Virus record (IMG/VR): IMGVR_UViG_3300009551_000129
Coordinates: 1-21,135 of that record
DNA length: 21,135 nucleotides
Reading direction: 5' to 3' (one strand)
DNA from: a virus
The notes below the pieces were generated by a model that worked only from the letters and a program-made list of their open reading frames with translations, searched no databases and was not told the DNA's origin. Each line of letters opens with the position of its first letter. Positions within the stretch are counted from its first letter, which is position 1. Position numbers and translations under genes: made by a program. Shown piece after piece: positions 2,749 to 21,135 of the stretch.

Positions 2749-2982
2749 ATGAAGCCAATCAAACAAAACGTTTACGGAGATGGGCACACAGACGGACATA
2801 CCTGTATAGATATCAACAATAACCTAACAGGCGTGCCATGTGCTGCGTGTAAGCAGGAATCAGAGCTCAGGTGCGCAGAATGCCGAGTTGAAATTGACCC
2901 CGAAGTCGATCACCGTATTCCGGCTGGCGAGTCCACGTCGGGTCAAGAGTTGTGGTTATGTGAGGTATGCGCTATTGACTGA
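2749..2982 (+). CDS. HNH-like zinc protein, catalytic helix apparently truncated
   Basis: 77 residues from ATG 2749. CAAC (31-34) and CAEC (42-45) precede a PEVDHRIP stretch with the D54-H55 pair, then a Gly-containing loop and CEVC (71-74). This order, CxxC, DH, CxxC, is that of HNH (beta-beta-alpha metal) endonucleases, where DH supplies the general base and the second CxxC is normally followed by a short helix carrying an Asn or His. Here the protein stops three residues after the last Cys (CAID-stop), so the third catalytic residue is missing. It may be a structural zinc protein or an inactive nuclease remnant. The last 8 bases overlap the methyltransferase start. A promoter-like sequence sits directly upstream. 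Confidence 0.6.
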   Translation: MKPIKQNVYGDGHTDGHTCIDINNNLTGVPCAACKQESELRCAECRVEIDPEVDHRIPAGESTSGQELWLCEVCAID

Positions 2983-3520
2983 CATCCGTCGCGCCTGGGC
3001 TATGCCAAATCTGGAAACATTTAGCGTTACACCAATCGGTGAATTGGTCCAGCGCTATTTGCGACGCGCCACAGTGAGTATTGATCCCTTTGCGCGAAAC
3101 AAACGCTGGGCGACGTACACCAACGATCTTAACCCGACCACTGAGGCTGAGTACCATATGGAAGTGGTCGATTACCTGAATCTGTTAACTGAGCGCGGAG
3201 TGAAAGCTGACCTGTTCCTGTTCGATCCGCCCTACTCACCGCGTCAGATTAAAGAATGCTACAGCTCAATCGGCAAAACGATGACTACTGCTGATGGACA
3301 AAGCGCCAGACTAAAGAAACTTTGGCGACAGGCGGCCCTCCCGCTGCTGACAGATGATGCGATTGTGATCTCCTGCGGCTGGAATAGCGTAGGATTCGGC
3401 GTGATGCTCGGATTTGAGTTGATAGAAGTACTGCTGGTCTGCCACGGCGGGGACCACAACGATACGATTGTTACAGTCGAGCGCAAGACGGCTGCTAGTC
3501 AGTCCGATTTATTTCAATGA
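2975..3520 (+). CDS. Phage amino-type DNA methyltransferase (probably adenine)
   Basis: 181 residues starting at TTG 2975, which has GAGG at 2962-2965 nine bases upstream and gives the N-terminus MTDIRRAWAMPN, similar to phage homologues as I remember them; ATG 3002 is the alternative. The catalytic motif DPPY is at residues 84-87 (FLFDPPYS), the signature of amino-methyltransferases that transfer methyl from S-adenosylmethionine to adenine N6 or cytosine N4. An upstream DPFAR (37-41), followed by TNDLNP, probably lies in the cofactor pocket. A separate target-recognition domain is not apparent, as in other short phage enzymes. The likely role is to mask phage DNA from host restriction. The target sequence cannot be read from here. 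It overlaps both neighbours, giving a coupled three-gene cassette. Confidence 0.8.
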   Translation: MTDIRRAWAMPNLETFSVTPIGELVQRYLRRATVSIDPFARNKRWATYTNDLNPTTEAEYHMEVVDYLNLLTERGVKADLFLFDPPYSPRQIKECYSSIGKTMTTADGQSARLKKLWRQAALPLLTDDAIVISCGWNSVGFGVMLGFELIEVLLVCHGGDHNDTIVTVERKTAASQSDLFQ

Positions 3521-11841: not shown

Positions 11842-12291
11842 ATGCCTACGCAATTCGAGTGGAATGAGAAGCGAACAGCAGCGGCTATCGCTTTGGCAGA
11901 GGGACGCACAGAGCAGGAGATCGCTGACACCCTTGAACTTGAGAGAAAAACTCTGTGGAATTGGAAACAAGTCCCTGAATTCGCAGCCGAAGTTGATCGT
12001 CTCTCGCTAATGGTGAACATTGCCGGTCGTGCTGAGAGGCTGCGTATCGCAATGCGAGTGGCACGGCAGAAGGTCCGAGAGGACGGGGTTGATACTGATA
12101 AGGATTTGTTAGATTGGCTGAAATTCGCCCAAAGTGAAACCGATGGAGTCAAGCTCGATCTCAACAAACTTGCCGCCGTCTTTGCGACTGACTCATCTAT
12201 GGCCGATAGCGGATCAAATCGACAGAGCGCTAACCAAAGCACAGCAAACAACAGCGGGCCTGCAAGCGACCAAACCAAGCCTATCAGTTGA
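11842..12291 (+). CDS. Terminase small subunit
   Basis: 149 residues from ATG 11842; no clear ribosome site. Residues about 8-45 are a helix-turn-helix (EKRTAAAIALAEGRTEQEIA followed by LERKTLWNWKQVPEF), the DNA-recognition domain with which small terminases choose the packaging site. The middle is helical (oligomerisation), ending in a low-complexity Ser/Asn/Gln tail. It lies immediately before the large terminase, and its 3' part overlaps the long frame of that gene by up to 158 bases in a different frame. The residues up to about 120 read as a normal protein, so I keep the full length. Product oligomers would recruit the large subunit ATPase. Confidence 0.8.
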   Translation: MPTQFEWNEKRTAAAIALAEGRTEQEIADTLELERKTLWNWKQVPEFAAEVDRLSLMVNIAGRAERLRIAMRVARQKVREDGVDTDKDLLDWLKFAQSETDGVKLDLNKLAAVFATDSSMADSGSNRQSANQSTANNSGPASDQTKPIS

Positions 12292-13645
12292 AGACTTACT
12301 GCCTCATCCCCAGCCCGGTCCACAACAAACCTTCCTAGCCAGTAACGCAGACATTGTAATCTTCGGCGGTGCTGCTGGAGGTGGTAAAACTTGGGCGCTA
12401 CTCATGCAGCCGTTGAAGCACATGAGTAATCCTCACTTTGGCGGTGTCATCTTTCGTCGCACCTCGCCACAAATAAGAAATCAAGGCGGATTATGGGATG
12501 AGTCAACGCAGATCTATCCATTATTGAACGCCGAGCCTCGGCAGACCGTTTTAGAGTGGCGCTTTCCTGCTGGCTCAAAACTCAAGTTCGCACATCTTCA
12601 ATACGATCTTGATGTTCACGATTGGCAAGGCGCACAAGTACCCTTCATCGGCTTTGACCAGCTTGAACACTTTTCAGAATCACAGTTCTGGTACATGTTC
12701 TCTCGTAATCGCTCGACTTGCGGGGTGCATCCTTACATTCGAGCCACGGTCAATCCCGACGCTGATAGCTGGGTAGCGAGTCTTATTGCGTGGTGGATCA
12801 ATCAAGATACTGGCTTCCCGATTGAAGAAAGATCAGGCGTCATTCGGTGGTTCATTCGCAGAGACAACGAACTTATTTGGGCTGACACTCGTGAGGAGTT
12901 GACTAGAGACGCGCCGGATGAGGAACCTAAATCGCTAACGTTTATCCCCGCAAAACTATCCGACAATCAGATCTTGATGCAGAAAGATCCGGGCTACCTC
13001 GCAAACCTCCGCGCACTGTCGTTTGTTGATCGTGAGAGACTGTTGGGCGGCAACTGGAAGATCGTTGCAACGGCTGGAAAGATCTTCAACCGCGCATGGT
13101 TTGAGATAGTAGATGCGGTTCCAGCCGGCGGTGAAGAGGTCCGGTTTTGGGATCTCGCTGCTACTGAAAAGAAGATGCTAGCAAAGACCGACAAAACCAT
13201 TGACCCTGACTTCACTGCGGGATGTGACATGAAGTTGGTAAGCGGCATCTTTTACGTGTTGGACGCTATTGCGGAGCAAATCGGACCCACTGATGCGGAT
13301 AACCTTATAAAAAATACCGCAAGCCAAGACGGCAAAGGATGTAAGGTGAGGTGGGAAATCGAAGGCGGGGCATCGGGAGTCAGAGATAATCAGCACCTTG
13401 TTCAACTGCTCGCCGGGTATAACTGCAAGGGTGTGAGGCCAGAGGGCGACAAAATCGTGCGAGCGAAGCCTTTAGCGGCACAAGCGGAGGCGGGCAATGT
13501 TAAGCTGCTCCGCGGGCCGTGGAACAATAGATGGCTGAATCACATGCACGGACAGCCCGAACTGCCGCATGATGACGAAATGGACGCAGCAAGCGGTGCA
13601 TTTAACGAACTGGCAGATCCAAAAGCGAAACTTCTCACTTGGTAA
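12134..13645 (+). CDS. terL: Terminase large subunit (packaging ATPase and nuclease)
   Basis: Up to 503 residues from GTG 12134. The ATPase domain has a Walker A-like GGAAGGGKTW (79-87), FRRTSPQIRNQGGLWD, and Walker B FIGFDQLEH (171-179). The nuclease domain has FWDLAAT (Asp 340), WEIEGGASG (Glu 410) and HDDEMDAASGAF (480-490), the acidic residues that bind metal. This enzyme pumps DNA into the procapsid and cuts concatemers. The start is uncertain: relatives as I recall begin about 15-20 residues before the PQPGPQ motif (59-64), near 12255, yet no ATG, GTG or TTG lies in frame between 12182 and there. The candidates are GTG 12134, ATG 12143 and TTG 12182, none with a good ribosome site. Confidence 0.93.
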   Translation: MKPMESSSISTNLPPSLRLTHLWPIADQIDRALTKAQQTTAGLQATKPSLSVEDLLPHPQPGPQQTFLASNADIVIFGGAAGGGKTWALLMQPLKHMSNPHFGGVIFRRTSPQIRNQGGLWDESTQIYPLLNAEPRQTVLEWRFPAGSKLKFAHLQYDLDVHDWQGAQVPFIGFDQLEHFSESQFWYMFSRNRSTCGVHPYIRATVNPDADSWVASLIAWWINQDTGFPIEERSGVIRWFIRRDNELIWADTREELTRDAPDEEPKSLTFIPAKLSDNQILMQKDPGYLANLRALSFVDRERLLGGNWKIVATAGKIFNRAWFEIVDAVPAGGEEVRFWDLAATEKKMLAKTDKTIDPDFTAGCDMKLVSGIFYVLDAIAEQIGPTDADNLIKNTASQDGKGCKVRWEIEGGASGVRDNQHLVQLLAGYNCKGVRPEGDKIVRAKPLAAQAEAGNVKLLRGPWNNRWLNHMHGQPELPHDDEMDAASGAFNELADPKAKLLTW

Positions 13646-13650
13646 CTTGA

Positions 13651-15027
13651 ATGATAGAAGATCTCAAATGGGCCTTAGGTGAGTTCGCGAGACTGGCGAA
13701 CGGTTACAAGATTGCTCGCGACTACTACGATGGGGATCATCGACTGGCATTTGCTACGGAGAAGTTTAAGAGCACGTTCGGCTCCCTGTTTGCGGCCTTC
13801 GCAGATAACCTTATGCCTGTAATAGTTGAGACTCCCCGAGACAGACTCAAGCTCGGAACGTTTAGCCTGGAAAACGAATCCGCTAAAGAACAAGCTACAG
13901 AGATTTGGCGCCGCAATAGGATGAAGAAACGAGCAGGTGAAGTGCATCTCGACTCGTTTATTGAAGGTGACGCTTATGTGGTTGTGTGGCCCGATGCTGA
14001 AGGGTTTCCAGTCTTCTATCCGAACCGGGCGTCAAGAATCGTGATTCAGTACGATGACGAGCAACCAGGATACATTGTTAAAGCCGCAAAAGCATGGGTT
14101 ACAGTGGATAAGCTCGCACGCATAAATCTCTACTACCGCGATCAAATTGAGAAGTACGTCACGCGAAGTAAGGTGCACGGCGGACTCCCGATCAACAATA
14201 AGCTATTCATACCATTTGAAACAGAAGGCGAAACATGGCCGCTTGATAATCCTTACGACAAGGTTCCTGTGTTTCACTTTGGCAACAGAACAAGCGTGGG
14301 GCAGCTAGGAAGGAGCGAGCTGTCAGAAGCGATTCCTCTACAAGACGCACTGAACAAATCCATTGCCGATATGTTGGTAGGCTCGGAGTTCTATGGAATT
14401 CCGCAACGCTGGGCTATCGGACTGGAGGAGATGGACGAAGAAACCGCAAATAAGAAGTATAAACTGATGGCTGGCGGCGTGTGGGGCACGACTAGCGAAA
14501 AGGCGTCATTCGGCGCATTTCCCACTGGAGACTTGAATCAATTCGTGACTGTGATCAATGACTTTCGTAAAGAGATCGCGCGAGTTTCACGTACGCCTTT
14601 ACATCACTTCACTCTTGAAGGCACTCCACCATCTGGCGAGTCGATGAAGACGGCAGACAGCCCTACGCTTGCGAAGGTGGATGATAGACAAGATGGCTGG
14701 GGAATGGTGTGGTCAGACGTGATGCGATTTGCTCTGGAGATTGCCGGGATAAAAGACACTGAGCCAGAACCTGTCTGGATTGATACGACGCCTCGAAATG
14801 AGACAGATGAGATCAATAACGCGGTAACGAAAGTCGAGCACTTAGGCGTAGACATGGAGACGGCTCAAAAAGAGATCGGGTACACCGATATTCAAATCCA
14901 GAAGTTTGCAGATGAGCGTGTTAACAGCGTGACGAATGGACCGCTCGCCGCTAAGGTTGCAATACAGAATGCACCGCCGGGAATTAAAGGGCTTCTGACC
15001 GCCCAAAGTAACGGGCGTGGCCGATGA
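13651..15027 (+). CDS. Portal protein (SPP1 gp6-like)
   Basis: 458 residues from ATG 13651, five bases after the terminase stop. Features of the family are YKIARDYYDGDHRLAFATEK near the N-terminus, DNLMPVIVETPRDRLKLGTF, a long middle with FHFGNR and RSELSEAIPLQDALNKSIADM, and a C-terminal helical region. Portals form the twelve-subunit ring at one vertex through which DNA enters and to which the terminase docks. Position and length fit the family (usually about 430-500 residues). The ribosome site is weak, so expression may depend on coupling to the terminase. The stop overlaps a short out-of-frame ATG, and the head operon then meets a terminator at 15295. Confidence 0.9.
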   Translation: MIEDLKWALGEFARLANGYKIARDYYDGDHRLAFATEKFKSTFGSLFAAFADNLMPVIVETPRDRLKLGTFSLENESAKEQATEIWRRNRMKKRAGEVHLDSFIEGDAYVVVWPDAEGFPVFYPNRASRIVIQYDDEQPGYIVKAAKAWVTVDKLARINLYYRDQIEKYVTRSKVHGGLPINNKLFIPFETEGETWPLDNPYDKVPVFHFGNRTSVGQLGRSELSEAIPLQDALNKSIADMLVGSEFYGIPQRWAIGLEEMDEETANKKYKLMAGGVWGTTSEKASFGAFPTGDLNQFVTVINDFRKEIARVSRTPLHHFTLEGTPPSGESMKTADSPTLAKVDDRQDGWGMVWSDVMRFALEIAGIKDTEPEPVWIDTTPRNETDEINNAVTKVEHLGVDMETAQKEIGYTDIQIQKFADERVNSVTNGPLAAKVAIQNAPPGIKGLLTAQSNGRGR

Positions 15028-15294: not shown

Positions 15295-15325
15295 GACCGG
15301 GATTTAGCCTCCCGGTCTTTTCATT
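15295..15325 (+). terminator. Rho-independent terminator after the packaging genes
   Basis: GACCGGGA (15295-15302) and TCCCGGTC (15310-15317) form a perfect eight-pair stem around a seven-base loop, followed by TTTTCATT. It ends the terminase-portal transcription unit and separates it from the accessory cassette that begins at 15371. Confidence 0.85.
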
Positions 15326-15370: not shown

Positions 15371-15898
15371 ATGCGTAAAATGATAACGCCAATCTTTAGC
15401 AACGGGGAAAGATACGCGCTACGGTGGGCGGTCTTACCACTGAGTTCACTGATGTTGTTCTACTGTGTGTGGGCCTGGCATCCCGTCGTTGGGCTATTCG
15501 CTCTGCTGTCGGTGGCTATGGCGAGCGTTTTTGGATTTGATATGAGAAGACGGAACGTTCTTATTGATAATCGTGCGCCGCATGAACGCTGGCCCGAGAT
15601 ATTACATTGGCAAAAGGATGACTTGTTCGAGGTAAGAGGGGCGTACTGTGGTCAAGCATTTTTAGAGTCAGTTACAGAGAGCGGCTCGGCCTACGTTATA
15701 GAAGGGCTATCACCGCAGGGCGGTCGCCCTGAGAAGTGGGCCGTATCCGATTTGGTAGGTAAAAATCGCAGCCTGAGATCGCGATATATCTCCGCTGAAA
15801 TGAAGCAATCAAACGAATACATGGAATTACTAGATGCTTTTCACCAATCGGTCGAAGAACTACGCGCGCGAGATAGAACAAATGGCCTACCAAAGTAA
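15371..15898 (+). CDS. Two-pass membrane protein with cytoplasmic domain
   Basis: 175 residues from ATG 15371 (ATG 15380 is an in-frame alternative). Residues about 17-36 and 38-57 are hydrophobic (ALRWAVLPLSSLMLFYCVWA, VVGLFALLSVAMASVFGF), forming a hairpin with both ends inside given the RR-rich border (DMRRRNVLID). The remaining about 115 residues are a soluble domain with mixed strand and helix (DDLFEVRGAYCGQAFLES, SAYVIEGLSPQ). No family is recognised. It sits after a terminator, inside the head operon, with a structured leader. This is the typical placement of an accessory (moron) gene such as a superinfection-exclusion or immunity protein, though that is inference. It overlaps the next gene by 17 bases. 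Confidence 0.7.
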   Translation: MRKMITPIFSNGERYALRWAVLPLSSLMLFYCVWAWHPVVGLFALLSVAMASVFGFDMRRRNVLIDNRAPHERWPEILHWQKDDLFEVRGAYCGQAFLESVTESGSAYVIEGLSPQGGRPEKWAVSDLVGKNRSLRSRYISAEMKQSNEYMELLDAFHQSVEELRARDRTNGLPK

Positions 15899-16196
15899 AA
15901 CCTATTCTCTCTCAGATGAAGTGATCGCGTGGCTGGGCACGTTGAAAGATGACTATGGCTCAGTCAACAAAGGACTCTTGGCGATGATGGCCGGGCAGAA
16001 TACCGACGTCGCTAAAACCGACGCCATCGGAGAGGGCGAGTACGTTGACAACCGTCCAAAGAACGCCTACTGCAAGCACTGTGGGAAGCGTTTCGCCGGA
16101 GCGAAGTTCGCAACCATTTGTCCTGAATGTAAATCCAGTGGGCATACTTTAACTCCTGCTGAATGTCCTGTATGTAATGAAGCGAGAGCTCTATGA
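15882..16196 (+). CDS. RHH-like N-terminus fused to zinc-ribbon domain
   Basis: 104 residues from ATG 15882; the frame is open further upstream but that part is antisense-like to the end of the preceding gene. Residues 7-36 (TYSLSDEVIAWLGTLKDDYG plus SVNKGLLAMM) resemble a ribbon-helix-helix or similar short DNA-binding unit. Residues 61-98 hold three Cys pairs, C64/C67, C80/C83 and C95/C98, consistent with a zinc ribbon plus an extra knuckle. The likely role is a small DNA-binding regulator, possibly of its own cassette, whose leader contains an inverted repeat. It overlaps both neighbours (17 bases before, ATGA after), so the three genes are co-translated. Confidence 0.65.
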   Translation: MAYQSKTYSLSDEVIAWLGTLKDDYGSVNKGLLAMMAGQNTDVAKTDAIGEGEYVDNRPKNAYCKHCGKRFAGAKFATICPECKSSGHTLTPAECPVCNEARAL

Positions 16197-16366
16197 GTTC
16201 TAGGGACACGGGATTCTTTGCGACCATATGTCTAATCCACTGGTGCCTAGGGGTGGCGGCCTTCATTTTGAGTATTTTTGATTTGCGACTTGCAATCTTT
16301 GGATTAGGCTGCTGGTTGATTGCGGCCTTATCTTTGTCGGAATGTGCGCGAGTGAATGACAACTAA
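16193..16366 (+). CDS. Small two-segment membrane protein
   Basis: 57 residues from ATG 16193, an exact ATGA overlap with the preceding stop. Hydrophobic segments lie at about 8-29 (FFATICLIHWCLGVAAFILSI) and 31-49 (RLAIFGLGCWLIAALSLS), separated by one Asp-Leu-Arg turn, with a polar tail (ECARVNDN). This is a minimal helical hairpin of unknown function. Being the second membrane protein of a three-gene coupled cassette, it may act with the protein at 15371. No database family is recognised. Confidence 0.65.
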   Translation: MSSRDTGFFATICLIHWCLGVAAFILSIFDLRLAIFGLGCWLIAALSLSECARVNDN

Positions 16367-16396
16367 TGTCCTCGTGTGTGGGGAGGGAAGGGCTAT

Positions 16397-16744
16397 ATGA
16401 GGGAACATAAACCGGGTAATCAGTATTTCACTGTGACCGAGGAACATATCAAGCTATTACGCCGTGCCGTTGTCGGCTGGGAAGATGGCGAGTTTGGCGC
16501 ACCCTCAATCGACTGTAAACGCCCTTACGGAAACTCGTCTGTCTACAACGACATTGCGGAGATTCTCGGAATCGAACCGACAGATGCCGATAATCAGGAT
16601 TTTAGTTCTGAGCAGCTTGACGACATGAGATCTTTGCACGAAGAGACGAGGACTGCATTGCAGATATTCCTAACTACTGGCCAGATGCTCGCAGGTGAGT
16701 ATGAAGCAGATCGATATCGGGATGACTGGAGACTAATGAAATGA
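16397..16744 (+). CDS. Phage hypothetical protein (conserved GWEDGEFGAPSIDCKRPYGN motif)
   Basis: 115 residues from ATG 16397, with GGGAGGGAAGG at 16381-16391 upstream. The sequence YFTVTEEHIKLLRRA then WEDGEFGAPSIDCKRPYGNS and VYNDIAEILGI is a pattern I recognise from many phage hypothetical proteins, usually about 100-120 residues long. The C-terminal half is helical (SSEQLDDMRSLHEETRTALQ). Its function has not been shown to my knowledge. It begins the chain of ATGA-coupled genes leading to the minor head protein, so it is co-expressed with the head genes. Confidence 0.75.
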   Translation: MREHKPGNQYFTVTEEHIKLLRRAVVGWEDGEFGAPSIDCKRPYGNSSVYNDIAEILGIEPTDADNQDFSSEQLDDMRSLHEETRTALQIFLTTGQMLAGEYEADRYRDDWRLMK

Positions 16745-16944
16745 GCGATAACAACGAACTACTAACCGGGATTGAAGAAATCGACAGAGAGATTCTCGCA
16801 CTGCTACCACAGACACAGACCATGTCAGCAGAGAGCGGAATGAACGATCGCGTCAGCCAATTGGGCAGCATGGCGGCATCGCAGAGAATTGCCGGATTAA
16901 GACAGGCGGCAGAGATTATCAAAGCGCGCGAGAGCGACAAATGA
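16741..16944 (+). CDS. Small helical protein, 67 residues
   Basis: Starts at an ATGA overlap with the preceding gene and ends in another with the next, so it is translationally coupled on both sides. The product is acidic and almost wholly helical (LLTGIEEIDREILALLPQTQ, SQRIAGLRQAAEIIKARES). No domain is recognised and there is no Cys, membrane segment or signal. The position suggests a small helper of head assembly, which is inference. Confidence 0.6.
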   Translation: MSDNNELLTGIEEIDREILALLPQTQTMSAESGMNDRVSQLGSMAASQRIAGLRQAAEIIKARESDK

Positions 16945-17354
16945 TTTGGGACAAAGTTCAGCGCAGATTTGAGCACGATGACGGTACTCCCTTGACTCCT
17001 GCCGAGGTAAAGAAGCACATTCACGACTTCATCGAATTAGAACAAAAGCTGATCTCTGCACAAGCTGAGAAGCTTGTACGCGATGAATTGACCGTTGCTG
17101 AGTTCTTTCAGTTCATGCGTCACAAGATTACAGCCATGCACCAAGTAACCGGAGCGATTGCTTATGGAGGTCAATCTCAACTCAACAGAGAGCGGCAAAA
17201 GAGAATCAATCAAAAGATACTTTCAGAGTTGAGGTATCTGAATGAGTTTGAAGCACAAGTTGAGCAATCATTTGCGGTAGTTGATAAAATAGCGGATAAG
17301 GTTGCAATTAGTGCAAAGAGAGGTAAGGACGGTAATGCAAACACTTCAGCCTGA
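16941..17354 (+). CDS. Minor head protein, N-terminal half
   Basis: 137 residues from an ATGA overlap. Residues about 30-112 match, from memory, the N-terminal part of phage minor head proteins: a helical lead, then DELTVAEFFQFMRHKITAMH, AIAYGGQSQLNRERQKRINQ and SELRYLNEFEAQVEQ. In ordinary relatives this pattern (xISVxEWxxxMRxxIKxxH ... GG ... YxFLxxFAxxI) continues straight into a Cys-rich C-terminal part. Here the protein ends after a short basic tail, and the expected continuation is found in a separate gene at 17783. The minor head protein links the portal or head interior to the shell and is needed for head assembly in related systems. The next gene starts 20 bases before its stop. Confidence 0.6.
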   Translation: MIWDKVQRRFEHDDGTPLTPAEVKKHIHDFIELEQKLISAQAEKLVRDELTVAEFFQFMRHKITAMHQVTGAIAYGGQSQLNRERQKRINQKILSELRYLNEFEAQVEQSFAVVDKIADKVAISAKRGKDGNANTSA

Positions 17355-17553
17355 ATCCGACTGGCCCGACTGGACGGATGCTGGAAAGCGCGTGGAAGTG
17401 AAACTAGAAAGCGGCGTCACGGTGCGGGGCGAATTAATCGTTGATGACTTTATCCCTAGTGATAGTGGCGAAGTCCCGCTATTTATAGTACTGGGCGACG
17501 ACGATACTAAGCACGGGTTTTCCGCAAATGACGGATGGATGTTTGAGCCATGA
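17335..17553 (+). CDS. Small SH3-like beta-barrel protein between the minor-head halves
   Basis: 72 residues from ATG 17335, overlapping the preceding gene by 20 bases and the next by an ATGA. AAGGA lies just upstream. The core RVEVKLESGVTVRGELIVDD ... VPLFIVLGDDDTKHGFSAND is a run of five or so strands as in Sm- or SH3-like barrels. It is short, acidic and soluble. No specific family is recognised. It separates the two halves of the minor head protein and may be an inserted accessory gene or a partner of the halves. Confidence 0.65.
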   Translation: MQTLQPESDWPDWTDAGKRVEVKLESGVTVRGELIVDDFIPSDSGEVPLFIVLGDDDTKHGFSANDGWMFEP

Positions 17554-17771
17554 ACATACTTAGCGATGAGGAATTCGACCGACACATGGAAGATCTGCGG
17601 CAACGCGCAGGCATGTCTAGTGCGGACGCTGCGCACAGTCGCCTAGCCGCAGCGTTGGATGCCGTAACGAATGCACTTCAACGCTTCGGGAGTGCGTTAG
17701 AAGTAGCAGTCGAGCAATGGCCCGAGCTCGTATACGAAGATATGTTAGATGCAGAATATTTAGAAGATTAA
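17550..17771 (+). CDS. Small acidic helical protein
   Basis: 73 residues from an ATGA overlap with the previous gene. It is helical throughout (DEEFDRHMEDLRQRAGMSSA, AAALDAVTNALQRFGSALEV) with an acidic tail (YEDMLDAEYLED). No motif or family is recognised. With the gene before it, it occupies the interval between the two halves of the minor head protein. The following gene begins 11 bases downstream at a GTG with TAAGG as its ribosome site. Confidence 0.6.
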   Translation: MNILSDEEFDRHMEDLRQRAGMSSADAAHSRLAAALDAVTNALQRFGSALEVAVEQWPELVYEDMLDAEYLED

Positions 17772-17782
17772 GGCCGCTTGCT

Positions 17783-18280
17783 GTGGCACGCAAAGGCTCA
17801 CGTAAAGACATCCAGGATGAAATCAGGCAGAAGGTAAGAAGAGCAATTCTCACCGCTGCTCCCTCTGAGGCTGAAGATCTCATTGCTGAAGCCCTCGGTG
17901 AAGACGTAGCAATCCCTGCTATTGGAAATCTGGTTGAAGATTTAATCGGCGGGCAGATTGTTAACCGAGCAACGATGTATGCGGAAGCTGCCTATGCTAC
18001 TTACGAGAACAACGTAGTCGAGAGAGAGAAAGACGAAGGCGTAACGCTCGGGCGCAGGGTACTTGAGGAAGGTGATAACTGTGAGGACTGCATCGCTGCC
18101 GCAACTGAAGAGTTCATCCCGCTTGATGAGATACCGGAAATTTCTGACAGCATCTGCGGGGTAAGATGCAGATGCAGCATAGAATTTTCGATAGACGGAG
18201 TTCAGTTTTCAACATCTGATTTATTCAGTGCAGTTGTTGGTGGTCAAGATCAGTATGGTGGAGACGTGGAGATTCGATGA
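17783..18280 (+). CDS. Minor head protein, C-terminal half (head morphogenesis Cys-rich domain)
   Basis: 165 residues from GTG 17783, with TAAGG at 17769-17773; the frame is open upstream but that part is Arg-rich shadow of the previous gene. Residues about 55-135 match the C-terminal part of phage minor head proteins: RATMYAEAAYATYEN, GRRVLEEGDNCEDCIAAA, EFIPLDEIPEISDS, ICGVRCRCSIEF, with Cys at 100, 103, 125, 129 and 131. The N-terminal 50 residues are a helical extension I do not recognise, and about 30 residues follow the core. The N-terminal half of the family is encoded separately at 16941. It is coupled by ATGA to the next gene. Confidence 0.65.
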   Translation: MARKGSRKDIQDEIRQKVRRAILTAAPSEAEDLIAEALGEDVAIPAIGNLVEDLIGGQIVNRATMYAEAAYATYENNVVEREKDEGVTLGRRVLEEGDNCEDCIAAATEEFIPLDEIPEISDSICGVRCRCSIEFSIDGVQFSTSDLFSAVVGGQDQYGGDVEIR

Positions 18281-18495
18281 CGCTTGAGGTATTCGAGATT
18301 GGTTCCCATGTGGTGATTGACGGTGAGATTCCCGCGATCGTGACCGCGATTAACGTGCGCGGAACTGAGCACCGATTACAGTATGAAGTTACGTGGTGGG
18401 ATGAGCGCACGCGGAAAAGTGAATGGGTTGAGCCTTTCGAGATCAAGCCGAAGGACGCAAAGACGCGGACAATGACATTCAAACCGCCATCGTAA
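18277..18495 (+). CDS. Small SH3/KOW-like protein
   Basis: 72 residues from an ATGA overlap with the minor head C-terminal gene. FEIGSHVVIDGEIPAIVTAI then RLQYEVTWWDERTRKSEWVE reads as a small barrel of the type that opens with a GxxVxxxxxxxGxVxxI turn. Such short proteins are common in phage head modules but their role is not known. The C-terminus is basic. It is the last plus-strand gene before the minus-strand cassette, and a terminator-like hairpin follows at 18528. Confidence 0.7.
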   Translation: MTLEVFEIGSHVVIDGEIPAIVTAINVRGTEHRLQYEVTWWDERTRKSEWVEPFEIKPKDAKTRTMTFKPPS

Positions 18496-19261: not shown

Positions 19262-19534
19262 ATGCCAAAAGCTAAAGCGCAAACAGTACAACAGGAACCG
19301 CACACGTCGTTTGGGCAGAATGGTTCATGTCCTGATTGTGAGGCTGATAAAAGCACGCTCACAGACGATGAATGCGACTTCATCATCCGACGCTTACTTT
19401 GGAAACTAAGAGACTCGACAAGTCCAATTGATTTCTTTCGTGAGATGAAACGAGGCGTGGTGTTTGAAGTATCTGACGCAAGTAGGGCCCGTGATTTAGT
19501 GCGGCTATTTGCCAAGGCTGAAGGAGCTAAGTGA
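19262..19534 (+). CDS. Small Cys-containing protein before the scaffold gene
   Basis: 90 residues from ATG 19262; no clear ribosome site. An N-terminal polar tail leads to C23-x2-C26 (GSCPDCEADK) and C38, a possible incomplete zinc knuckle. The rest is helical and strand-forming (FIIRRLLWKLRDSTS, MKRGVVFEVSDASRARDLVR). No family is recognised. Its TGA overlaps the scaffold ATG by one base, so the two are coupled. It may be the first gene of the unit driven by the promoter at 19151. Confidence 0.65.
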   Translation: MPKAKAQTVQQEPHTSFGQNGSCPDCEADKSTLTDDECDFIIRRLLWKLRDSTSPIDFFREMKRGVVFEVSDASRARDLVRLFAKAEGAK

Positions 19535-20184
19535 TGCCAGATGATCCCGGTCAAGGAGCCGATCCGACCCAGGCATTTCAGAATCGTCTGAACAAACTGA
19601 ATGGCGATGCAATGCTATTCGCTACTCAACTGTTTGATGAGAACTACCGTCTCAGGGAAGACAAAAGAACGCTTGGCGCTCAACTCGAAGAATTGAAAAC
19701 CAAGGCTCCGGCAGAGGGTGCATTGGTCCTCGTCGGCGATGAGGCTAAGGCTTACGAAGCTTATAAGGCGCTCGGAACTCCAAAGGAACTGAAGGACCGC
19801 ATTGATGCCTATCCAACACTCGAAAATGAAAACAAGGGATTGAAGCTTCGAGACTCGCTGCGCGAGGTCGCAGATGTTGGGTTTGGCGGCAGTAAGTTGA
19901 AGTTTGGGATACTTGAAGATCGAGTGAAAGCTGCCGGTGGAAACCTTCAGTTTGTGATCAAGGAAGAGGGTCGAGATAAGCGCAAGGTCGCTTACGTGAA
20001 GGACGGAGACAAGGAAACTTCGTTAGAACAGTACGCCGAAAAGAATTGGGCGGACTACATGCCATCTCTCAAGGCAGAGCAGGCCAAACGGACAGGCTCA
20101 GCTAATGGCGGAGAGGGCAATGGACAGCCCGCAAAGTTCGATATGAACACGATGATCCGTCAGCAGGCTGGCTACCCTTCCTAA
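19534..20184 (+). CDS. Scaffold-like head assembly protein
   Basis: 216 residues from ATG 19534, with AAGGAG at 19521-19526 (GTG 19531 is too close to that site). An N-terminal helical stretch holds a coiled coil (NRLNKLNGDAMLFATQLFDE ... LREDKRTLGAQLEELKTK). The middle is mixed (LVLVGDEAKAYEAYKALGTP), with a second charged helical part and a Gly/Asn-rich linker near the C-terminus (SANGGEGNGQPAKF). Position directly before the major capsid gene, coiled coil, charge and length all fit a phage scaffolding protein, which templates procapsid assembly and then leaves. A catalytic protease motif is not evident. The TAA is followed at once by the ribosome site of the capsid gene. Confidence 0.7.
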   Translation: MPDDPGQGADPTQAFQNRLNKLNGDAMLFATQLFDENYRLREDKRTLGAQLEELKTKAPAEGALVLVGDEAKAYEAYKALGTPKELKDRIDAYPTLENENKGLKLRDSLREVADVGFGGSKLKFGILEDRVKAAGGNLQFVIKEEGRDKRKVAYVKDGDKETSLEQYAEKNWADYMPSLKAEQAKRTGSANGGEGNGQPAKFDMNTMIRQQAGYPS

Positions 20185-20190
20185 AGGAGG
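20183..20190 (+). promoter_or_regulatory. Strong Shine-Dalgarno sequence of the capsid gene
   Basis: AAAGGAGG, the longest match to the anti-Shine-Dalgarno sequence I see in the window, ends six bases before the ATC at 20197. Its spacing fixes the capsid start at that codon, since the next in-frame ATG (20308) is 117 bases away. Confidence 0.8.
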
Positions 20191-20196
20191 TGTGCC

Positions 20197-21135
20197 ATCG
20201 CTTACGACAATATTATATCTAGAACTGACGCACAGGCTCTCATCCCTGAAGACGTTGCGGCAGAGATAATCCAAAACACAATCAAACAGTCCGCGGCCCT
20301 TACGCTGATGCGGCGCGCGACAATGGCGACGAATCAGCAACGTATGCCGGTCCTGTCTGCGCTCCCGATCGCCTACTTCGTCAATGGCGATACCGGACTC
20401 AAACAGACAACTGAAGTCGCGTGGGGCAACAAGTTTCTCAACGCAGAAGAGATTGCCTGTATCGTCCCTATCCCTGAAGCGGTGTTGGAAGATGCGAGCT
20501 TTGATGTGTGGGGGGAAATTCGACCTAAGCTGGAAGAGGCAGTAGGCCGCACGTTGGACGCAGCGATATTCTTTGGCACTAACAAGCCTTCAAGCTGGCC
20601 AACTGACATCGCGGCATCGGCTGTCTCTGCTGGTAACGTCATTGCTCGTGGTACAGCGAACGCCGCAGCCGGTGGAATCGCTACTGACATCTCCGACACT
20701 ATGGCGACCGTCGAGGCGGATGGTTTTGACGTGAACGGATTTGTTACCTCCCGATCCTATCGTCGGTTTCTCCGCAATGCTCGTGACACTACGGGTCAGA
20801 AGCTTCTTGACATCGCATTGAACACAATCGAAGGTGAGCAGGTAGTCTATGCGCTTAATGGTCTATGGCCGACAGGCGCGAGTGCGGCTGAATTGTTTAC
20901 CGGAGACTGGATGCAATTCGTCCTTGCTGTTCGACGCGACATGACCTACAAACTGCTCGATCAGGCGGTGATTCAGGACAACACCGGAGCCATCGTCTAT
21001 AACCTAGCCCAACAGGATATGGTTGCGATGCGGTTGACGTTCCGCGCAGCGTGGCAAGTCGCAAATCCGATCAGTTATGACAATCAAGTCGAAGCCAACA
21101 GATATCCAGTTGGCGTACTTCGTTCGCCTGCCTAA
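20197..21135 (+). CDS. Major capsid protein (HK97 fold), ATC start codon
   Basis: 312 residues when read from ATC 20197 (MAYDNIISRTDAQALIPEDV). That beginning matches the N-terminus of HK97-type capsid proteins as I know it. In frame a TAA lies at 20182, and no ATG, GTG or TTG occurs until ATG 20308, which would delete 37 conserved residues. AAAGGAGG sits six bases before the ATC. The rest fits the fold: an N-arm, MPVLSALPIAYFVNGDTG and EVAWGNKFLNAEEIACIVPI (E-loop and sheet), the long helix FDVWGEIRPKLEEAVGRTLD, and a C-terminal domain ending DMVAMRLTFRAAWQVANP. This protein forms the icosahedral shell. Its stop is the last base of the window. Confidence 0.92.
   Translation: MAYDNIISRTDAQALIPEDVAAEIIQNTIKQSAALTLMRRATMATNQQRMPVLSALPIAYFVNGDTGLKQTTEVAWGNKFLNAEEIACIVPIPEAVLEDASFDVWGEIRPKLEEAVGRTLDAAIFFGTNKPSSWPTDIAASAVSAGNVIARGTANAAAGGIATDISDTMATVEADGFDVNGFVTSRSYRRFLRNARDTTGQKLLDIALNTIEGEQVVYALNGLWPTGASAAELFTGDWMQFVLAVRRDMTYKLLDQAVIQDNTGAIVYNLAQQDMVAMRLTFRAAWQVANPISYDNQVEANRYPVGVLRSPA

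What the first reader, a model, noticed from the sequence alone, without database searches (positions are those of the whole stretch)
16941..18280. Minor head protein split into two genes with two other genes between them
The product of 16941-17354 resembles the N-terminal half of phage minor head proteins, and 17783-18280 the Cys-rich C-terminal half. Between them lie two coupled small genes (SH3-like and acidic helical). Each half has extra residues at the break, as if they had adapted to work in trans. I see no intron or intein motifs. The arrangement could be a functional split caused by gene insertion.
Basis: partly seen in the sequence, partly recalled or inferred. Interest (0 to 1): 0.58.

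Follow-up and report, generated by a model that had tools for sequence, protein, structure and literature searches.

The report
Phage head-gene split around swappable genes
A gene that helps build a bacterial virus's head is broken into two pieces with unrelated small genes in the gap, yet both pieces are kept under strong selection, so the head protein probably works as two parts.

Summary
N-half (16941-17354) and C-half (17783-18280) match adjacent parts of one family, PHROG 24776 (positions 10-137 and 123-207 of 218), and adjacent parts (residues 1-119 and 135-272) of one uninterrupted 291-aa protein in a relative. Nothing conserved is lost. Intact homologues exist in eight other phage types, mostly just after the portal gene. 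One related phage type, found in five assemblies, has the same split at the same place (halves 91% and 95% identical), but its gap holds a different, shorter gene. Both halves are under strong purifying selection (dN/dS 0.10 and 0.05). The break falls in a predicted loop of the intact protein. No intron, intein or homing endonuclease signal was found. So this is very likely a stable, functional split head-morphogenesis gene whose gap acts as an exchange slot. That the two genes now present caused the split is not supported, because the relative has other cargo there. Phage genes-in-pieces are known for enzymes (Aeh1 nrdA, phage 25 gene 43). New here are the head-assembly gene, the non-endonuclease cargo and its turnover. 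Head function is inferred; association of the halves is untested.

The parts
16941..17354 (+). N-half of the split head-morphogenesis gene (137 aa)
   Evidence: PHROG 24776 positions 10-137, E 1.1e-7; residues 1-119 of the intact L021 protein; dN/dS 0.10 against L002
17306..17782 (+). Exchange slot: DNA between the two halves that shares no homology with the slot of the closest split relative L002 (blastn block ends at 17305, next begins at 17783)
17335..17553 (+). Gap gene A, 72 aa, start overlaps the end of the N-half; relatives in Vibrio phages lie beside their head-morphogenesis gene
17550..17771 (+). Gap gene B, 73 aa, acidic, overlaps gene A by ATGA; no relatives found
17783..18280 (+). 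C-half of the split gene (165 aa, GTG start), Cys-rich motif C..C and CRC
   Evidence: PHROG 24776 positions 123-207, E 7.6e-12; residues 135-272 of the intact L021 protein; dN/dS 0.05
13651..15027 (+). Portal gene (SPP1 gp6-like), context: intact homologues of the split gene usually lie directly after the portal gene
   Evidence: PF05133 E 4.8e-28
15371..16944 (+). Small genes inserted between portal and N-half, partly exchanged relative to L002
18277..18495 (+). 72-aa gene directly after the C-half, overlapping it; a relative follows the intact gene in L076 (50% identity)

Best explanation
A single head-morphogenesis (minor head) gene that normally lies directly behind the portal gene was broken, in an ancestor of this phage and of the L002 type, at the codons for a loop between two long helices. 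Each piece acquired its own start or stop and stayed in the operon. The two polypeptides probably associate again after translation, giving the same structure at the portal as the unbroken protein. The gap then became a permissive slot in which small accessory genes are gained, lost and replaced by recombination between the conserved flanks. Shown: the split, its position, its presence with different cargo in a second phage type, and the selection on both halves. Inferred: head function, reassociation in trans, and recombination as the way of exchange.
For: Both halves hit adjacent parts of PHROG 24776 and of the intact L021 protein; alignments with L021 and L075 show no loss at the break. Intact homologues as single ORFs: L021, L075, L076, L050, L051, L036 (fused to a portal; L034 is the same phage), Cr-LKS4 with RM-2018a, and S-CBS4. 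Head role: direct adjacency to the portal; fusion with a portal domain in one ORF in L036 (PHROG 3753 E 7.8e-42 plus PHROG 24776 E 1.1e-16); Foldseek against viral models, 27 of the 50 rows shown named minor capsid, head or capsid morphogenesis (562 matches with E up to 10 in all, 13 with E up to 0.001). Split conserved with 91% / 95% identical halves but unrelated gap in L002-L006. dN/dS 0.10 (N-half) and 0.05 (C-half) at dS about 0.45-0.48, against 0.03 for the portal and 0.015 for the capsid protein. The intact L021 protein is predicted with high confidence as one unit (pLDDT 86.4, pTM 0.80) and the break maps to the loop at residues 124-128; the C-half predicted alone is not confident (pLDDT 42.6, pTM 0.24), as expected if it needs its partner.
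Against: No experiment. The head function rests on position, a fusion and weak fold matches (E 1e-4 to 6e-3, mostly low TM-scores); there was no PDB match of note and no match to Pfam Phage_Mu_F. Closest portal relatives L009 and L010 (83% portal identity) have no recognisable copy of either half (0 of 2 records, L010 a 7.9-kb fragment), so the gene may be dispensable or replaceable. The low confidence of the C-half model may come from the thin alignment (5 rows against 8). Only two phage types carry the split; the five L002-type contigs are near-identical and count as one. The tree that places the split pair next to intact L021, L075 and L076 is poorly resolved.
Confidence: 0.77

Rival explanations
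1. The two halves are made as separate proteins and stay separate: the break fell between two domains that each do their own job (for example one on the portal, one elsewhere), without reassociating.
For: The break lies at a loop followed by a linker of very variable length in intact homologues; both pieces are conserved individually.
Against: The intact protein is predicted as one compact unit (pTM 0.80), while the C-half alone is predicted poorly; both are consistent with, not proof of, mutual dependence.
Confidence: 0.12
2. The gap is a self-splicing intron, so one joined protein is made, as for the capsid gene of mycobacteriophage LittleE.
For: Removing the gap could restore an in-frame protein of about the right length (by inspection); LittleE shows that spliced introns occur in phage capsid genes (PMC3706429, section read).
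Against: No intron family matches the window (gathering threshold), or, at E up to 10, window 17200-17900 or L002 5640-6120. The gaps of the two phage types share no sequence (longest common word 9, shuffles average 8.2, maximum 12) and differ in length (428 against 236 bases), whereas introns at one site should share their core and ends. The gap here is filled by overlapping genes, one with relatives that are free-standing genes in Vibrio phages.
Confidence: 0.05
3. The halves are remnants of a gene no longer needed.
For: L009 and L010, with 83% identical portals, have no detectable copy.
Against: Strong purifying selection on both halves with about 0.45 to 0.48 synonymous changes per site; intact reading frames, start codons and cysteines kept in both phage types.
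Confidence: 0.04
4. Two separate genes are the original state and the intact proteins are later fusions.
For: The rooting of the tree is not certain (midpoint only).
Against: The intact form is found in eight phage types, several of them much more distant from the window than L021 is, and PHROG 24776 itself is built over both parts; the split is seen in two close types only.
Confidence: 0.02

Closest known systems
Split nrdA of Aeromonas phage Aeh1 (mobE insertion)
   Same: A phage gene broken into two separate coding regions, no splicing, both products functional together (passages of PMC2988022; PMC3653736)
   Different: There an enzyme and a homing endonuclease in the gap; here a head-assembly gene and small genes without endonuclease match
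Split gene 43 (43A/43B) of Aeromonas phages 25 and 44RR
   Same: Same kind of split with different intervening DNA in two related phages (a seg endonuclease in 25, an untranslated stretch in 44RR); the products of phage 25 co-purify (passage of PMC2988022). This is the closest match to the swapped cargo seen here
   Different: DNA polymerase, not a head protein; cargo here is ordinary small coding genes
Mycobacteriophage LittleE major capsid gene
   Different: There an intron is spliced out and one protein is made; here no intron signal and cargo without homology between relatives
PHROG 24776 (intact in Cr-LKS4, RM-2018a, S-CBS4)
   Same: Both halves are homologous to it; it lies next to the portal gene
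   Different: Continuous gene there; annotated as hypothetical or of unknown function

Membership tests
PHROG 24776 (portal-linked family, unknown function in PHROGs) | Sequence match to the profile | tested here: met
   N-half 10-137 (E 1.1e-7), C-half 123-207 (E 7.6e-12) of 218
PHROG 24776 (portal-linked family, unknown function in PHROGs) | One continuous gene | tested here: not met
   Two genes 428 bases apart, with stops in all three frames of the gap
PHROG 24776 (portal-linked family, unknown function in PHROGs) | Position directly after the portal gene | tested here: not met
   About 1.9 kb with small genes lies between portal and N-half; intact L021, L075, L076 and S-CBS4 overlap the portal gene
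Phage_Mu_F (PF04233) / SPP1 gp7-type minor head proteins | Match to the Pfam profile | tested here: not met
   No hit for either half at E up to 1; 0 of 11 records at E up to 1
Phage_Mu_F (PF04233) / SPP1 gp7-type minor head proteins | Fold of minor capsid / head morphogenesis proteins | tested here: inconclusive
   27 of 50 rows shown in the viral library carry such names, E 1e-4 to 5e-3, mostly low TM-scores
Phage genes-in-pieces (Aeh1 nrdA type) | Both pieces retained and constrained | tested here: met
   dN/dS 0.10 and 0.05
Phage genes-in-pieces (Aeh1 nrdA type) | Homing endonuclease in the gap | tested here: not met
   Gap genes of the window and of L002 have no Pfam, PHROG or NCBIfam endonuclease match at E up to 1
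Phage genes-in-pieces (Aeh1 nrdA type) | Products act together | not testable with these tools
   Needs co-purification or genetics
Group I or II intron | Match to an intron model | tested here: not met
   None in the window or in the L002 gap

The most novel reading that the evidence does not exclude
The split head gene is a standing docking slot: because the gap lies inside a gene under strong selection, its cargo is flanked on both sides by sequences that relatives share, so recombination swaps accessory genes there while the virion part keeps working from two polypeptides. Gap gene A, whose only relatives found sit beside the head-morphogenesis gene of Vibrio phages, would be one such travelling gene adapted to this neighbourhood, possibly acting on the portal and head complex.
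Probability: 0.25. Interest if true: 0.62.

Novelty: new variant of a known kind. Interest (0 to 1): 0.5.

Why it matters
Head-assembly proteins are usually thought of as hard to break. A split that keeps both halves and lets neighbours come and go would show how small accessory genes can lodge inside a constrained structural gene cluster. It gives a natural break point for testing how the portal-linked head protein assembles, and points to a head role for a family still listed as of unknown function.

Tried and rejected
Intron: rejected on Rfam and on lack of shared sequence between the two gaps. Intein: no match in Pfam, PHROG or NCBIfam for either half. Homing endonuclease cargo: none found in either gap. 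Transposition marks at the gap: no direct or inverted repeats at its borders. Weak Pfam and NCBIfam names for the halves (Ino80 subunit, TolQ and others, all below cut-off) were taken as chance.

Searches that led nowhere: tblastn of either half in 50,697 phage records; scans of genome contigs with the C-half and N-half alignments, so no host could be named; scan of viral contigs with gap gene A; gap gene B and the L002 gap gene in phage records; a DNA search with gap gene A. Gap gene A was found in 1 of 18 records (the window itself). Fold search in the PDB gave no match with E up to 0.001; the best second-look rows, Z up to 7.5, are helical proteins without a phage-head link, which the tool's own note treats as possibly only a common arrangement. 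The C-half model was too poor to search with.

Mistakes of mine: gap gene A and the capsid gene, and the capsid gene, were translated in a wrong frame; those rows were not used. The capsid comparison uses the right frame, without the first codon. Papers: ten searches; none of the searches aimed at a split minor head or head-morphogenesis gene listed a paper. This covers only the open-access library.

Full report
What is there. The window is a 21,135-base virus record. It reads terminase (12134-13645), portal (13651-15027), small genes, N-half (16941-17354), two small genes (17335-17553 and 17550-17771), C-half (17783-18280, GTG), small genes, scaffold-like gene (19531-20184; named by position only) and major capsid gene (to 21135). 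The N-half overlaps the start of the first gap gene, that gene overlaps the second by ATGA, and the C-half starts 11 bases after the second. The two halves match adjacent stretches of PHROG 24776, positions 10-137 and 123-207 of 218.

Intact relatives. A terminase scan brought 41 loci. In L021 one ORF of 291 aa matches both halves: the N-half covers residues 1-119 and the C-half 135-272. Two further intact genes, L075 (299 aa) and L076 (306 aa), came from scans with L021 and with a C-half alignment. Searching 35 records with PHROG 24776 found it in 8; three of these are the L002-type contigs L003, L005 and L006, and the other five are L021, L034, L036, L050 and L051. L034 and L036 are the same phage (99.98% over 5,627 bases), and there the domain is fused behind a portal in one 762-aa ORF. 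Among named phages intact copies lie in Cr-LKS4, RM-2018a and S-CBS4, in Cr-LKS4 one small gene behind the portal and in S-CBS4 overlapping it. In sum, the intact form was seen in eight phage types and the split in two.

Second split type. Five contigs (L002-L006) from five metagenome assemblies are essentially identical to each other (99.97-100%) and count as one type. Their halves are 91% and 95% identical to those here, and the genes are again separate. The homologous DNA ends at 17305 here and resumes exactly at the GTG of the C-half. The gap there is 236 bases with one 80-aa ORF carrying a CxxC motif (start codon uncertain), against 428 bases with two genes here; longest shared word 9, shuffles average 8.2. 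Elsewhere in the portal-to-capsid region the two types alternate between 87-92% identical blocks and unrelated cassettes, so the gap is one of several exchange points.

Selection. Between the window and L002, dN/dS is 0.104 for the N-half (126 codons; 0.081 over the 122 codons before the break), 0.050 for the C-half, 0.033 for the portal, 0.015 for the capsid protein, 0.156 and 0.134 for two small neighbours. The halves are thus under real constraint since the two types separated.

Structure. The intact L021 protein is predicted confidently (pLDDT 86.4, pTM 0.80) as long helices followed by a small mixed part; the break maps to residues 124-128, the loop between the helix ending at 123 and the one starting at 129 (with the alignments). 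In the viral structure library 27 of the 50 rows shown are named minor capsid, head or capsid morphogenesis; 17 rows have no name, 3 are uncharacterised, and one each is a portal protein, Gp15 of phage G and a zeta toxin domain protein. The PDB gave nothing useful. The C-half alone was predicted poorly; this fits a need for the partner but may reflect a thin alignment.

Gap genes. Gene A has relatives in three Vibrio phage records (1.198.A, 1.198.B, 2E1; 39-41% over 51 residues, E 6e-4 to 8e-4). In the two records whose regions I viewed, 1.198.B and 2E1, it lies next to a 356-aa gene, pointing the other way, that matches head-morphogenesis PHROG 241 (E 2.7e-79 and 4.7e-83); in 1.198.B the annotated portal gene lies on its other side. 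The two A and B isolates are one phage type in effect, and 2E1 is 96% identical in this protein, so independence is limited. Gene B and the L002 gap gene have no relatives found.

Reading. A portal-linked head-morphogenesis gene was broken at a loop; both pieces stayed functional and the gap has hosted different small genes. What opened the gap is unknown. A homing endonuclease that was later lost would fit the precedents (passages of PMC2988022), but nothing here shows it.

Against. The halves are missing in L009 and L010 (0 of 2 records), whose portals are 83% identical, so the protein is not universal in this group. The tree of the C part puts the split pair next to L021, L075 and L076 (91/95) in an unresolved fork, and in the N-part tree the split pair forms one group (96/99) beside the same three. 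Only two split types are known.

Literature. Seen: passages of PMC2988022, PMC3653736, PMC2993671 and PMC7824862; passages and section 19 of PMC3706429. Other papers were seen in search listings only. No paper describing a split minor head gene was listed by searches.

Noticed in passing
window 20190-20202: The capsid gene here reads ATC where both relatives L002 and L009 have the ATG start codon, behind a good AAAGGAGG site: a rare start codon or a sequencing error.
   Followed up: partly
window 19531-20184; L002 7232-7819; L009 10155-10805: The scaffold-like protein is 87% identical to that of L009 over its length but shares only a 30-residue stretch near its end with L002, so a recombination point lies inside the gene, before a conserved tail.
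   Followed up: partly
L009 9613-10110: Where L009 lacks the head gene it has a 165-aa ORF with an HELMH motif, like a metalloprotease (by eye; only a weak PHROG hit).
   Followed up: no
window 18277-18495: The 72-aa gene overlapping the end of the C-half has relatives after the intact gene in L076 (50%) and after a long ORF in the portal position in L019, a record with no head-gene copy found.
   Followed up: partly
window 15295-15317: Terminator-like hairpin of 8 pairs with a T run after the portal gene, before the small genes (such sites are not more frequent than in shuffles).
   Followed up: no
L036 6584-8872: Portal and the PHROG 24776 domain are fused in one 762-aa ORF, the opposite of the split seen in the window.
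   Followed up: partly
window 2840-3520: ORF with a DPPY motif, like an adenine DNA methyltransferase (by eye).
   Followed up: no
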